From contig NZ_RWKV01000008.1 in assembly GCF_003993795.1 (NCBI RefSeq), forward strand, positions 1,116,001 to 1,180,000: a stretch of DNA of 64,000 nt. The letters run 5' to 3'. This stretch comes from Aquabacter cavernae. GTDB lineage: Bacteria; Pseudomonadota; Alphaproteobacteria; Rhizobiales; Xanthobacteraceae. The notes below the pieces were generated by a model that saw nothing but the letters and a program-made list of their open reading frames with translations, was not told where the DNA came from and searched no databases. Made by a program: the position numbers and the translations under genes. Shown here piece after piece: positions 1-34,772 of this stretch (positions within the stretch are counted from its first letter, which is position 1; each line of letters opens with the position of its first letter).

Positions 1-457
1 GAGCGCCGAAATTCAGCAGGCGGTAAAAGGCCTTCACGAACAGGCGCCGGGCCGTCGGCTCCTCGGAACGGTCCGCCTTCACCGCATAGGCCACGTCGAT
101 GCCCTGGTCCTTCCAGAGACCGACGAAGGTGTCGATCATTTCCGGCGGGTGCTGGCCGTCTCCGTCCATGAACAGGAGCGCATCGCCCCGCGCATGGTCG
201 AGCCCGGCCATGAGGGCCGCTTCCTTGCCGAAATTGCGGGACAGGGCCACCACCTGGACATCCACGCCCAGCGGCGCCAGCTCGGCGGCGCGCAGCGCCG
301 TTCCGTCCCGGCTGCCATCGTCCACATAGACGATTTCCAGCCGCATGCCGCGCGCCTGCGCCGTGCGCGCCGCGCAGGCGGACAGCCGCCGGTGAAACAC
401 ATCGATTCCGCCCGCTTCGTTATAGAGCGGGACCACAATGCTGAGGTCCGGTGTCAC
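1..457 (-). CDS. Glycosyltransferase family 2, N-terminal part (cut by window edge)
   Basis: The frame reads leftward from a GTG at 457 and runs off position 1, so only about 152 N-terminal residues are present. They start with LSIVVPLYNEAGG, followed by EIVYVDDGSRDGT, ALSRNFGKEAALMAGLDHA and FMDGDGQHPPEMI. These are the nucleotide-sugar and metal-binding motifs of GT2 enzymes of the dolichyl-phosphate-mannose synthase/GtrB/ArnC type. Members move a sugar from a nucleotide donor to a polyprenyl phosphate at the cytoplasmic membrane, often with C-terminal membrane helices, which are not visible here. An in-frame TAA lies eight codons upstream of the GTG, so a longer start is excluded. The substrate cannot be told from this fragment. 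Confidence 0.85.
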   Translation of the reverse strand, partial: MTPDLSIVVPLYNEAGGIDVFHRRLSACAARTAQARGMRLEIVYVDDGSRDGTALRAAELAPLGVDVQVVALSRNFGKEAALMAGLDHARGDALLFMDGDGQHPPEMIDTFVGLWKDQGIDVAYAVKADRSEEPTARRLFVKAFYRLLNFGA

Positions 458-550
458 CGCCGCGCACCCAGGCTGACGTTAGAGCCGACGCTTCGTTTAG
501 CCCCGTTCGGAGCCACAGACGAGAGGCGCAGATTTTTTTTCATTTTTTCT

Positions 551-575
551 GGAACCCGAAACCGGAGCGGCCGTT
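551..575 (+). promoter_or_regulatory. EcfG (general stress sigma factor) promoter
   Basis: GGAAC at 551-555 is followed by exactly 16 bases and CGTT at 572-575. This matches the -35/-10 consensus (GGAAC-N16-17-CGTT) of the alphaproteobacterial general-stress sigma factor EcfG/RpoE2/SigT. No protein-coding start follows closely. The next downstream element is the hairpin pair at 588-650, so this promoter most likely drives a small RNA. An identical arrangement with the same 16-base spacer lies before csbD at 56256-56280. Confidence 0.8.
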
Positions 576-581
576 ATGTAC

Positions 582-656
582 ACGGAACGATCGACTTCCC
601 CCCCTTGATCGATCCATGCGACGCGGCCGCCTCTCCCCCAGGCGGCCGCGTTTTCT
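582..656 (+). ncRNA. Candidate general-stress small RNA with two C-rich loops
   Basis: The expected start is about 7 bases after the EcfG -10 box. Hairpin 1 pairs 588-594 with 605-611 (7 bp, one G-U) and exposes a 10-base loop, CTTCCCCCCC. Hairpin 2 pairs 622-632 with 640-650 (11 bp, perfect) around the loop CTCCCCC and is followed by TTTTCTTTT, a textbook intrinsic terminator. Both loops are complementary to Shine-Dalgarno sequences. The layout resembles the Caulobacter general-stress RNA GsrN, which is SigT-controlled and has an exposed C-rich loop, but homology is not established. The ends are inferred from promoter and terminator geometry. Confidence 0.7.
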
Positions 657-659
657 TTT

Positions 660-785
660 AGAGCCTGATCCCCTCAGGTTGAAGCGATCTGAGGGGCGGA
701 TCAGCCTCTAACTCTTTGAGAGAGAGCGATTCACGCCCCACCTTGACGCACCAAGATGCGTCAAGGTGGGGCGATCGCACCCTAG
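660..785 (+). repeat. Interspersed repeat family A, copy 1 (126 bp, two hairpins)
   Basis: The copy begins AGAGCCTGATC and ends near GCGATCGCACCCTAG. It aligns end to end with the reverse complement of 49933-50058. The first half folds as nested CTGATC/CCTCAG arms. The second half holds a perfect 17-bp inverted repeat, 734-750 against 757-773, with a 6-base loop. The hairpin arms differ in sequence between the copies while the flanks AGAGCCTGATC, GAGAGCGATTCA and GCGATCGC are shared, as expected for a structured repeat. No open reading frame is supported in it. Confidence 0.75.
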
Positions 786-886
786 GGTCCCCTCACGGCG
801 GCTTTGCGGCGGATCAACATTGCCTCCTGGAACCTCATTAGGTTTATGGTGTCGCCGTTTTTGCGGCACCGGGAGGGCCTTTCGTT

Positions 887-1717
887 ATGATCCGCGACAT
901 TCTCGTCAATCTCAGCCAGGGCACCGACCACGACCGGGCGGCGGCCTTTGCCATCAGCCTGGCGTCCAAGTTCTCGGCCCATCTGACGGGCCTGGCGGTG
1001 ACGTACGAAATCGACGTTCCGCCCTTCTATATGGGCGCCCTGCCCACCGATTTCCTGGAAACCCAGATGCAGGAAAACACCGCGGCAGCCGCTGCCGCCG
1101 GTGAAGCCTTCGCAGCGCGCGCGGCGGCGGCGGGCCTCGTCCACGATGTGCGCTCCATGAGCGGCTCGCTCGGCCTTGCGGCCAACAGCCTCGCGGAAAT
1201 GTCGCGCGCCTATGACCTCACCGTGGTGGCGCAGCCCGACCCGGACCGGCCGGGGCCGGAAGAGGTGATCGCCGAGACCGTCCTGCTGGAATCCGGCCGT
1301 GCGGTGCTGGTGGTTCCCTATGTGCAGCGCGACGGCTATGGCGGCGGCCGCGCCGTGGTGGCCTGGGACGGCAGCCGCGCCGCCGCGCGGGCGCTGGCCG
1401 AGGGACTGCCGCTCCTGCACCGCGCCTCCGTGGTGGAAGTGCTGCGCGTCGTGCGCGCCAGCGACGAGCCGGCGGATTGCGAGGACGTGCTGCGCCATCT
1501 CGCCCGGCACGGCCTCACCGCCACCACGCGCACCCTGCATGTGGGCAATGGCGAGCCCAGCATCGCCCAGACCATTCTCAACGAAGTGTCCGACCAGGGC
1601 GCCGACCTCGTGGTGATGGGCGGCTACGGCCATTCGCGCCTGCGCGAACTGGTCATGGGCGGCGTCACCCGCGAGATCCTCTCGGCCATGACCGTGCCCG
1701 TGCTGATGGCGCACTGA
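887..1717 (+). CDS. Universal stress protein, tandem UspA domains
   Basis: This 276-residue protein carries two UspA-type Rossmann domains. The N-terminal one (about 1-145) starts MIRDILVNLSQG. The C-terminal one (about 150-276) starts RAVVAWDGSRAA and ends with GGYGHSRLRELVMGGVTREI, the nucleotide-binding G-X2-G-X9-G(S/T) signature. The second domain therefore probably binds ATP, while the first lacks a clear motif. Tandem Usps are cytoplasmic stress-tolerance proteins; no specific partner is indicated. A GGGAGGG ribosome-binding site lies a suitable distance before the ATG. The gene stands alone and converges on trcR, with a shared bidirectional terminator between them. Confidence 0.9.
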   Translation: MIRDILVNLSQGTDHDRAAAFAISLASKFSAHLTGLAVTYEIDVPPFYMGALPTDFLETQMQENTAAAAAAGEAFAARAAAAGLVHDVRSMSGSLGLAANSLAEMSRAYDLTVVAQPDPDRPGPEEVIAETVLLESGRAVLVVPYVQRDGYGGGRAVVAWDGSRAAARALAEGLPLLHRASVVEVLRVVRASDEPADCEDVLRHLARHGLTATTRTLHVGNGEPSIAQTILNEVSDQGADLVVMGGYGHSRLRELVMGGVTREILSAMTVPVLMAH

Positions 1718-1855: not shown

Positions 1856-2548
1856 TCACTCGTCGTCTTCGTCGGCCTCGGTCTTGCGGGAACCGCCCAG
1901 CTTGGCGAACACGGTTTCCAGATCGAGGGATTCGCGGCGGGGCGGCGCATCCTCATGGCGGCGGGTGGTGACATCCGCCGGCAGCAGGGTGGCGCCGCGC
2001 TCTTCCACGGCGGAAGCGGGCCGGTCCTTGGCCGCGCGCTGAACCTCGATGTCCAGGTCGATCTGGCTGCACAGGCCGAGCGTGACCGGGTCCATGGGCT
2101 GGAGCTGCGCCGAGTTCCAGTGGGTCCGTTCGCGGATCGCCTGGATGGTGGACTTGGTGGTGCCCACCAGGCGGATGATCTGGGCGTCCTTCAGCTCGGG
2201 ATGATTCCGGGTGAGCCAGAGGATGGCGTTCGGCCGGTCATGGCGGCGCGAGACGGGGGTGTAGCGCGGCCCCTTGCGGGTCTTCTTCTCCGGCAGGCGC
2301 ACCTTGGATTCCAGCAGCTTCAGGCGCCGGTTGGGATCCTTCTCGGCGATCGCGATCTCGTCGCGCGCAAGCTGGCCGGTGGAGATGGGATCGAGACCCT
2401 TGATGCCCTGCGCCACTTCGCCGTCGGCGATGCCCTTCACTTCCAGAGCGTGCAGTTTGCAGAAGTCTCCGATCTGCTCGAACGTGAGGGCCGTGTTATC
2501 GACCAGCCACACGGCGGTCGCCTTTGGCATGAGGGGGGTGTTCGACAT
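1856..2548 (-). CDS. trcR: TrcR-type cell-cycle transcriptional regulator (DUF1013)
   Basis: The 230-residue product matches the DUF1013 family found throughout Alphaproteobacteria. It opens MSNTPLMPKATAVWLVDNT, continues with LTFEQIGDFCKLH, and has the central block RRHDRPNAILWLTRNHPELK followed by QIIRLVGTTKSTIQAIRERT, which reads as a DNA-binding helix-turn-helix. The C-terminal 60 residues are charged and low in complexity. The family includes TrcR, reported as a cell-cycle-linked transcription regulator in Caulobacter and Rickettsia. The start is supported by AGAGG seven bases upstream. It is transcribed alone, leftward, ending at the shared terminator. Confidence 0.9.
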   Translation of the reverse strand: MSNTPLMPKATAVWLVDNTALTFEQIGDFCKLHALEVKGIADGEVAQGIKGLDPISTGQLARDEIAIAEKDPNRRLKLLESKVRLPEKKTRKGPRYTPVSRRHDRPNAILWLTRNHPELKDAQIIRLVGTTKSTIQAIRERTHWNSAQLQPMDPVTLGLCSQIDLDIEVQRAAKDRPASAVEERGATLLPADVTTRRHEDAPPRRESLDLETVFAKLGGSRKTEADEDDE

Positions 2549-34373: not shown

Positions 34374-34697
34374 ATGACCAGACGAACACGGCCCCAAACG
34401 ACGGGGCGCGGCGGGCGCATCCGGGGTTTCTCAGCGGGCGGACGCCATACGGACATCGCCGCGCGCATGACCGCCCTCGCCGTCTTTACCGGCGACGATC
34501 CGGCGGCGCTCCGCAGTGCCCTGCGGGCCTGTCGAAGGGCGAGCCTCCAGACCCCGCAGGCTTATGACGCGGCCCGGCACGCCGCGCTGCTGAGGCTGCT
34601 GCGGCAAGGTTCGGCACCCCTGCGGGACGATGCGGGACGGGCCCGGAACGGCAGGGCAGAAAAGGAAACGGCGCCGTCCGGGGGACGGCGCCGTTGA
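34374..34697 (+). CDS. Possible small basic hypothetical protein
   Basis: A 107-residue Arg/Ala-rich frame begins with GGGAGACAGGAC before the ATG, a good ribosome-binding site. It includes DIAARMTALAVFTGDDPAALRSALRACRRASLQTPQAYDAARHAALLRLL, which could be two helices. The last 12 codons run through the hairpin that terminates mucR on the other strand, which argues against it. No family is recognised. Confidence 0.35.
   Translation: MTRRTRPQTTGRGGRIRGFSAGGRHTDIAARMTALAVFTGDDPAALRSALRACRRASLQTPQAYDAARHAALLRLLRQGSAPLRDDAGRARNGRAEKETAPSGGRRR
34655..34695 (-). terminator. Intrinsic terminator of mucR
   Basis: AACGGCGCCGTCC (34667-34679) pairs perfectly with 34683-34695. Read leftward, the hairpin is followed by TTTCCTTTTCTG, so it serves the minus-strand mucR gene. 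Confidence 0.8.
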
Positions 34698-34772
34698 AGG
34701 CGGAAGCAATGCTGTGCCTGAGCGGGGTCGGCCGCCCTGCGGCGGCCCACCCTGCCAAGGACCGCTGAACGC

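What the first reader, a model, noticed from the sequence alone, without database searches (positions are those of the whole stretch)
551..660. EcfG-controlled candidate sRNA with two C-rich anti-Shine-Dalgarno loops
Seen directly: a perfect GGAAC-N16-CGTT promoter, a 7-bp hairpin with loop CTTCCCCCCC, then an 11-bp terminator hairpin with loop CTCCCCC and a T run, all within 110 bp and with no ORF. Established: EcfG/SigT controls the alphaproteobacterial general stress response, and Caulobacter GsrN is a SigT-dependent sRNA acting through an exposed C-rich loop. Inference: this is a GsrN-like or convergent stress sRNA that pairs with ribosome-binding sites. A Usp gene lies next to it.
Basis: partly seen in the sequence, partly recalled or inferred. 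Interest (0 to 1): 0.75.

Follow-up and report, generated by a model that had tools for sequence, protein, structure and literature searches.

The report
Stress-controlled small RNA with C-rich loops
A short, non-coding RNA gene with two hairpins whose loops are runs of C, sitting behind the same general-stress promoter in related soil and water bacteria, probably tunes several mRNAs during stress by pairing with G-rich sites; nobody has yet shown that the RNA is made.

Summary
Window 551-660 holds GGAAC-N16-CGTT, a hairpin with a C7 loop and a terminator hairpin with a C5 loop. A covariance model built without the promoter found homologues in Aquabacter, Azorhizobium and Xanthobacter. All 21 matches with E<=7.6e-9 carry GGAAC-N16-[C/G]GTT 31-32 nt upstream; with two weaker ones, 23 of the 49 matches inspected do. 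Spacers are 40% identical while GGAACC is invariant. Stems covary, and 24 of 24 aligned members keep at least five C in both loops. The host has an EcfG/NepR/PhyR locus. EcfG control and a structured sRNA are well supported; expression is untested. No Rfam family reaches its threshold: nearest in build are 6C/B11, CcsR and ar14; nearest in wiring is Caulobacter GsrN. The strict anti-Shine-Dalgarno motif CCUCCUCCC is absent (0 of 24). The usp neighbour is syntenic but has its own FNR/FixK-like box. A GsrN-like katG match in this genome is not conserved. Similar EcfG-plus-C-loop loci occur elsewhere in Alphaproteobacteria, notably in nine genomes of one unnamed genus.

The parts
531..550 (+). 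T-rich tract just upstream of the -35 element, possibly an UP-like element
   Evidence: Sequence; by eye an A/T-rich tract stands near the same place in homologues printed. Function inferred.
551..575 (+). EcfG-type promoter GGAAC (551-555) - N16 - CGTT (572-575)
   Evidence: conserved 31-32 nt upstream of the model start in 23 homologues, -10 CGTT in 21 and GGTT in 2, mean spacer identity 0.396.
582..659 (+). predicted sRNA, about 75-80 nt; start (about 581-582) and end are inferred, not mapped
   Evidence: Distance from the -10 element and T-run after hairpin 2; fold z -5.5; models R1 and R2.
584..615 (+). hairpin 1, loop CTTCCCCCCC at 595-604
   Evidence: 5 of its 10 pairs show two-sided changes among 24 homologues; loop C-run 5-9 in 24 of 24.
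620..652 (+). hairpin 2 / terminator stem, loop CTCCCCC at 633-639
   Evidence: 4 of 13 pairs show two-sided changes, 99.7% of cells paired; loop C-run 5-6 in 24 of 24.
650..659 (+). U-rich tail of the intrinsic terminator
   Evidence: 6-7 T in the last ten columns in the Aquabacter and Azorhizobium rows, 2-6 in the Xanthobacter (g65) rows.
2..457 (-). divergent glycosyltransferase family 2 gene (cut by the window edge), syntenic neighbour
   Evidence: Pfam PF00535, E 1.8e-27; beside the sRNA in 21 of 21 promoter-bearing loci tested.
887..1717 (+). universal stress protein gene, syntenic neighbour; not part of the sRNA unit
   Evidence: Pfam PF00582, E 1.8e-16; 21 of 21 loci tested.
804..817 (+). 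FNR/FixK-like box TTGCGGCGGATCAA upstream of usp
   Evidence: TTG-N8-CAA at -78 to -83 of the usp start in 20 of 21 loci; the name of the box is recalled.

Best explanation
A trans-acting small RNA of the general stress response. Under stress PhyR frees EcfG from NepR (established for Alphaproteobacteria), and EcfG transcribes an RNA of about 78 nt made of two stable hairpins. Each hairpin exposes a run of 5-9 C. The two loops act as interchangeable seeds that pair with G-tracts in 5' leaders or ribosome-binding sites of several mRNAs and change their translation or stability, probably more often repressing than activating. Shown here by sequence: the conserved promoter, covarying stems, conserved C-runs and a GSR locus in the host. 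Inferred: transcription, EcfG dependence in vivo, pairing with mRNAs and the direction of control.
For: Promoter at a fixed offset in 21 of 21 homologues with E<=7.6e-9 found with a promoter-free model, plus 2 weaker ones; boxes kept while spacers diverged. Covariation: 9 pairs and 27 cells with two-sided changes, against 4.5 and 9.7 in shuffles (1 and 0 of 500 reach it) and 2-3 pairs in slid structures (that alignment is fitted to the model, so it leans towards it; the unfitted 7-row alignment has 3 pairs against 0.9, 15 of 500). C-runs of 5 or more in both loops in 24 of 24. Hairpin 2 and its C-loop persist where the U-run is lost (L078, L089), so it is kept for more than termination. GSR locus with ecfG, nepR-like and phyR genes and EcfG-type promoters. 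Precedents, passages read: GsrN, whose six tandem loop cytosines are modelled to set its targets (PMC5869019), and mycobacterial B11, whose two C-rich loops redundantly repress a leader with a six-G tract (PMC10470900).
Against: No transcript data. No conserved target found: the one target tested a priori, katG, fails, and 9 of 24 genomes searched gave no katG (some are incomplete). The usp leader has GGGGG in 10 of 21 loci, all of genus g65, and no G-run longer than 2 in five others. The -10 is GGTT in two Aquabacter members. Two related loci have lost the promoter (L067, L069). The motif is not enriched genome-wide over its reversed control.
Confidence: 0.68

Rival explanations
1. It is the 5' leader (attenuator) of usp: EcfG transcription runs through hairpin 2 into usp, and the hairpins set read-through.
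For: usp lies downstream on the same strand in 21 of 21 loci tested; most Xanthobacter members have a poor U-run after hairpin 2.
Against: usp has its own FNR/FixK-like box at a fixed distance in 20 of 21. The window has a good U-run and about 120 nt with two palindromes between terminator and box. An attenuator would not need C-runs in both loops.
Confidence: 0.1
2. The RNA binds a protein (a single-stranded C-run binder, or a DUF1127-type processing factor) and acts as a sponge rather than by pairing with mRNA.
For: C-run composition, not one exact sequence, is kept while stems change; CcsR RNAs of Rhodobacter are matured with the small protein CcaF1 (PMC10253847, passages).
Against: The promoter stands 31-32 nt before the hairpins, leaving no room for a cotranscribed upstream gene as in the ccaF1-CcsR operon; the C-loop RNAs with studied targets (B11, GsrN) are reported to act on G-rich mRNA sites. 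No binding protein was searched for.
Confidence: 0.12
3. It is a diverged member of the CcsR/ar14 'cuckoo' RNA class.
For: Below-threshold matches over the whole RNA: CcsR1 27.4 bits with the best E-value (3.7e-5), ar14 31.5-32.2 bits; an alphaproteobacterium; repeated C-rich hairpins.
Against: Far below gathering scores (65.3 and 58.8); CCUCCUCCC in 0 of 24; EcfG promoter instead of the sigma-70 type of NfeR1/ar14 or RpoHI/RpoHII of CcsR; the best bit score is 6C, an actinobacterial family.
Confidence: 0.1
4. A common terminator with a chance promoter-like match upstream.
For: The promoter motif alone is not enriched in this genome (47 against 41); the 24 unrelated weak model matches inspected look like plain terminators.
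Against: Fixed-offset conservation with diverged spacer, covariation in hairpin 1, and synteny.
Confidence: 0.02

Closest known systems
GsrN (Caulobacter, sigma-T/EcfG-dependent sRNA; eLife 2018, PMC5869019, passages read)
   Same: EcfG-class promoter, run of C in an exposed loop, terminator hairpin, short RNA; same regulatory system.
   Different: GsrN is about 100 nt, acts mainly through its 5' C-rich loop and is cleaved to a 5' isoform. Ours has two C-run hairpins, lies beside usp and shows no conserved katG match. Sequence homology not tested.
6C RNA / B11 sRNA (Actinobacteria, Rfam RF01066; B11 paper PMC10470900, passages read)
   Same: Two hairpins, each with a C-run loop; highest Rfam bit score at the site (39.8, over model positions 1-75).
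   Different: Below the gathering score of 47; another phylum (recalled); no EcfG control; probably convergent.
CcsR1-4 (Rhodobacter, Rfam RF02791; PMC10253847, passages read)
   Same: Two C-rich hairpin loops in the model, stress-induced sRNA in an alphaproteobacterium; best E-value.
   Different: Loops are CCUCCUCCC, RpoHI/RpoHII promoter, cotranscribed with ccaF1 (DUF1127); our score 27.4 against 65.3.
NfeR1 / ar14 family (Rhizobiales, Rfam RF02344; PMC10746234, passages read)
   Same: C-rich, anti-Shine-Dalgarno-like loops in repeated hairpins.
   Different: Three hairpins with identical CCUCCUCCC, sigma-70 type promoter; our score 32 against 58.8.

Membership tests
EcfG (general stress) regulon | GGAAC-N16/17-CGTT promoter (consensus recalled), conserved upstream of the gene in relatives | tested here: met
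   23 homologues with GGAAC-N16-[C/G]GTT at -31/-32; the same motif stands before the nepR-like and ecfG genes of the host.
EcfG (general stress) regulon | Transcript lost in an ecfG mutant | not testable with these tools
   No expression data available.
GsrN | Sequence homology to Caulobacter GsrN | not tested
   The GsrN sequence was not obtained; GsrN is reported BLASTn-detectable only within Caulobacteraceae.
GsrN | Run of C in a 5' loop plus 3' terminator hairpin, EcfG-type promoter | tested here: met
GsrN | Pairing with the katG leader | tested here: not met
   A 9-nt complement in G000; 15 of 24 other genomes have katG, 13 with a usable upstream stretch, and none of the 13 has CTGGGGGAG.
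GsrN | Position near the ecfG-nepR-phyR locus (typical of predicted homologues; C. crescentus gsrN itself is an exception) | tested here: not met
   GSR locus is on contig C15, the sRNA on C1; a weak criterion because of the exception.
6C RNA (RF01066) | Score at or above the gathering threshold | tested here: not met
   39.8 against 47 for the window, 40.2 for L053.
6C RNA (RF01066) | Two hairpins with C-run loops | tested here: met
   Alignment over the whole model.
CcsR (RF02791) | Loop motif CCUCCUCCC | tested here: not met
   0 of 24 homologues.
CcsR (RF02791) | Score at or above the gathering threshold | tested here: not met
   27.4 against 65.3.
CcsR (RF02791) | Cotranscription with a DUF1127 gene from an RpoH promoter | tested here: not met
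   EcfG-type promoter 31-32 nt before the hairpins leaves no room for an upstream gene; flanking genes are a divergent glycosyltransferase and usp. No genome-wide DUF1127 search was made.
ar14 / cuckoo (RF02344) | Three hairpins with CCUCCUCCC loops; score at or above 58.8 | tested here: not met
   Two hairpins, poly-C loops, 31.5-32.6 bits.

The most novel reading that the evidence does not exclude
RNAs with two or three C-run hairpin loops behind an EcfG promoter are a recurrent post-transcriptional arm of the alphaproteobacterial general stress response, arisen or kept in several families with different neighbours (Xanthobacteraceae beside usp; another family of the order beside hisG; single candidates in four further families, and a fifth beside an HWE-type kinase), with GsrN as one case. 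Alphaproteobacteria would thus repeatedly have built stress sRNAs on the 6C/B11 principle.
Probability: 0.4. Interest if true: 0.72.

Novelty: new variant of a known kind. Interest (0 to 1): 0.55.

Why it matters
It gives a named set of genomes, including Xanthobacter autotrophicus, Azorhizobium and Aquabacter species, in which a general-stress sRNA can be tested at once. It joins two things known apart: EcfG control (GsrN) and paired poly-C loops (6C/B11). If the wider pattern holds, it predicts where many alphaproteobacteria keep a general-stress sRNA that plain sequence search misses, because only promoter, C-runs and stems are kept.

Tried and rejected
Usp as evidence of shared stress control: rejected, because usp has its own FNR/FixK-like box. 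katG as target: an exact 9-nt match in G000 looked striking, but none of 13 usable upstream stretches in other genomes has it (L165 is cut by the contig end, L178 was placed by guess and looks like coding sequence, L179 is a partial second copy in G005). One of them, G232, has another GGGGG. The longest complement to the own sRNA in those other stretches is 6-11 nt, so 9 is not unusual. The usp ribosome-binding site as target: GGGGG in 10 of 21 loci, all of g65; left as a lead. Other copies in the host genome: the second R1 match (window 34658-34709, minus) is a plain terminator without promoter; an ar14 search of the genome gave only weak matches, and its first look missed the site itself. 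Plasmid search: no match. Naming the second genus (g81) was not possible with unnamed handles.

Rows set aside: of the matches listed, 49 were inspected for promoters (30, 19); the other weak ones were not. L067 stayed in the 24-row alignment although it lacks the promoter; L069 (truncated) was left out. Duplicate pattern rows (L153-L155, L162) were merged before counting sites. Alignment A1 took four minus-strand loci on the wrong strand and was discarded.

Literature: none of the papers listed by searches is, by title, about this RNA. These lists were capped (for example 12 of 9,379 and 8 of 3,798) and cover open-licence PMC papers only. The 2015 cuckoo-family paper and the 2019 6C paper were not held.

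Full report
What is there. The window's site reads T-rich tract 531-550, GGAAC 551-555, N16, CGTT 572-575, hairpin 584-615 (loop CTTCCCCCCC), hairpin 620-652 (loop CTCCCCC) and a T-run. The RNA folds at -37.8 kcal/mol against -21.2 (sd 3.0) for shuffles, z -5.5. Taken alone the promoter is weak evidence: the exact motif occurs 47 times in the 4.5-Mb genome and its reversed control 41 times.

Where it is. The window lies in G000, contig C1. The genus mate G001 has the contig length (205,136) and promoter sequence of Aquabacter spiritensis DSM 9035, so the window comes from an Aquabacter-like species; the family, Xanthobacteraceae, is recalled.

Homologues. A DNA search of 61 genomes gave clear matches in 4 of 4 other genus members and in three genomes of other genera (G016, G021, G005); most of the other matches at E<=1 are short and look like chance. 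A covariance model of seven sequences, without promoter columns, was run over 391 genomes of the family: 104 had a match at E<=0.01. I inspected 49 of the listed matches. All 21 with E<=7.6e-9 have GGAAC-N16-CGTT (19) or GGAAC-N16-GGTT (2) at 31 or 32 nt before the model start. Two weaker ones (G224, G215, both of genus g65) have it at 31. The other 26 do not: L067 keeps both C-loops but has lost the promoter, L069 is truncated, and the remaining 24 look like unrelated terminators. In 21 loci the motif with [C/G]GTT occurs 21 times in 125,846 both-strand positions, only at these promoters. Across 23 promoters GGAACC and GTT are invariant, while the 16-nt spacer is on average 39.6% identical. 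A pattern scan of the GTDB collection gave 16 stretches, all titled Aquabacter, Azorhizobium, Xanthobacter or Hyphomicrobiales/Rhizobiales bins; 15 of 16 have the promoter. That pattern was made from known members, so it cannot show absence elsewhere.

Structure. On the 24-row alignment A3, 93.8% of cells pair; 9 pairs and 27 cells have two-sided changes (shuffles 4.5 and 9.7; slid structures 2-3 pairs). RNAalifold on the same alignment gives nearly the same structure, with 8 pairs of that kind. A3 was fitted to the model, which favours the structure; the unfitted 7-row alignment showed 3 such pairs against 0.9 in shuffles (15 of 500). Longest C-run: loop 1 5-9, loop 2 5-6, in 24 of 24. In g65 members the U-run after hairpin 2 is weaker (2-6 T in the last ten columns, against 6-7 in the rest) while stem and C-loop stay, so hairpin 2 is not kept only as a terminator.

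Surroundings. The divergent glycosyltransferase (PF00535) and downstream Usp (PF00582) flank it in 21 of 21 promoter-bearing loci tested (L078 and L089 were not in that test). usp carries TTG-N8-CAA at -78 to -83 in 20 of 21 loci, followed by a TAGGGT-like element (by eye), so it looks separately controlled by an FNR/FixK-type regulator (name recalled). The GSR locus of the host (L077, contig C15) holds an EcfG-like sigma factor, a NepR-like protein (22.3 bits, below Pfam's 25.7 cut-off), a PhyR and an HWE/HisKA_2 kinase. It has 12 EcfG-type motifs with at most one mismatch in 18 kb against 3.28 expected (0 of 200 shuffles), including ones before the nepR-like and ecfG genes.

Wider occurrence. 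Model R2 over 397 genomes of the order found 25 with a match at E<=5e-4, the window's own included. Of 19 loci inspected, six, all of one unnamed genus (g81), carry GGAAC-N16-CGTT 57-60 nt upstream with an extra 5' hairpin between. Four of these six lie between a dienelactone-hydrolase-like gene and hisG (names read by eye from translations). Over 385 genomes of the class 11 had a match, the own included; of ten loci inspected none had the promoter at the place seen in Xanthobacteraceae; two had a motif-like match at -65 or -55 that I did not follow.

A pattern search for exact promoter + two C-runs gave 12 distinct sites (15 raw matches) in 11 of 249 genomes of the order, against 4 raw matches of the reversed pattern and 1 site in 244 genomes for a pattern with the promoter boxes reversed. 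In 240 genomes of the class it gave five sites besides the window's against 2 for the reversed pattern, so the excess outside the order is small. A fold rule (C-run in the loop of a stem of at least 6 pairs) found two or more such hairpins in 8 of the 12 order sites (window included; L148 weak) and in 2 of the 5 class sites (L157, and L159, whose genus mate L160 scored none); the single control site had one. L158, beside a kinase with an HWE-type motif (by eye), scored one. Three of the 12 are further g81 genomes (G465, G529, G556), so nine g81 genomes carry the RNA, with CCCCC invariant in both terminal loops; two have a C-run in the 5' loop as well. Against this, the pattern found nothing in g81 genomes G424 and G599, nor in G499, G578 and G618, where the model had found the RNA. 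Whether the g81 RNA shares ancestry with the window's or is convergent is open.

Mechanism. Best reading: EcfG-made trans-acting RNA with two redundant poly-C seeds for G-tracts in mRNA leaders. Precedents read as passages: GsrN and B11. The only a-priori target, katG, failed: G000 has CTGGGGGAG in its leader, an exact complement of loop 2, but none of 13 usable upstream stretches in other genomes has it, and 9 of 24 genomes gave no katG. The usp leader has GGGGG in 10 of 21 loci, all g65. The direction of regulation is unknown; GsrN activates katG, B11 represses.

Known families. No Rfam family reaches its gathering score at the site (one search lists only a tRNA in the whole window). Below threshold: 6C 39.8 bits (47), ar14 31.5-32.2 (58.8), Scr3202 27.5 (52), CcsR1 27.4 (65.3), sX13 27.0 (50) and others; CcsR1 has the best E-value. 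In 11 representative loci at E<=0.05, three had a match at the sRNA (6C in L053, ar14 in L048, sX13 in L057), all below threshold. NfeR1/ar14 has three CCUCCUCCC hairpins and a sigma-70 promoter (PMC10746234, passages); CcsR is made with ccaF1 from an RpoHI/RpoHII promoter (PMC10253847, passages). RpoE2 motifs were reported before 23 sRNAs of S. meliloti (PMC3616915, passages), and EcfG-dependent sRNAs were proposed to be prevalent in the clade (PMC5869019, passages). So the kind is known; this RNA, its double poly-C build and its family are what is added.

Noticed in passing
window 804-817: FNR/FixK-like box TTGCGGCGGATCAA before usp, at -78 to -83 in 20 of 21 loci tested; usp is probably oxygen-controlled.
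   Followed up: yes
window 661-780: Two strong palindromes (around CCTCAG...CTGAGG and CGCCCCACCTTGACGCA...TGCGTCAAGGTGGGGCG) between the terminator and the usp promoter, not seen in the nearest relative L018: a species-level repeat-like insert.
   Followed up: no
window 34658-34709, minus strand: Second, weak match of model R1: a terminator with a GTCCCCCGG loop and no EcfG motif.
   Followed up: partly
window 1856-2548, minus strand: TrcR (PF06242) cell-cycle regulator gene next to usp, with a GC-rich palindrome flanked by A- and T-runs at about 1796-1830 that may terminate both genes.
   Followed up: no
L113-L117, L124, L145-L147: Genus g81: EcfG-promoted RNA of about 110 nt with three hairpins and invariant CCCCC in the last two loops; between a dienelactone-hydrolase-like gene and hisG in four of the six loci whose neighbours were read.
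   Followed up: partly
L142, L144, L156, L157, L158: Single genomes of five other families with an exact EcfG motif followed by C-run hairpins (L158 scored one C-loop by the rule and lies beside an HWE-type kinase and tatC).
   Followed up: partly
L163, about 92 bases before the katG HMM start: The host's katG leader holds CTGGGGGAG, an exact complement of sRNA loop 2; not conserved in relatives.
   Followed up: yes
L057 319-509: Near-threshold match to sRNA sX6 (38.2 against 40 bits) in a g65 relative.
   Followed up: no
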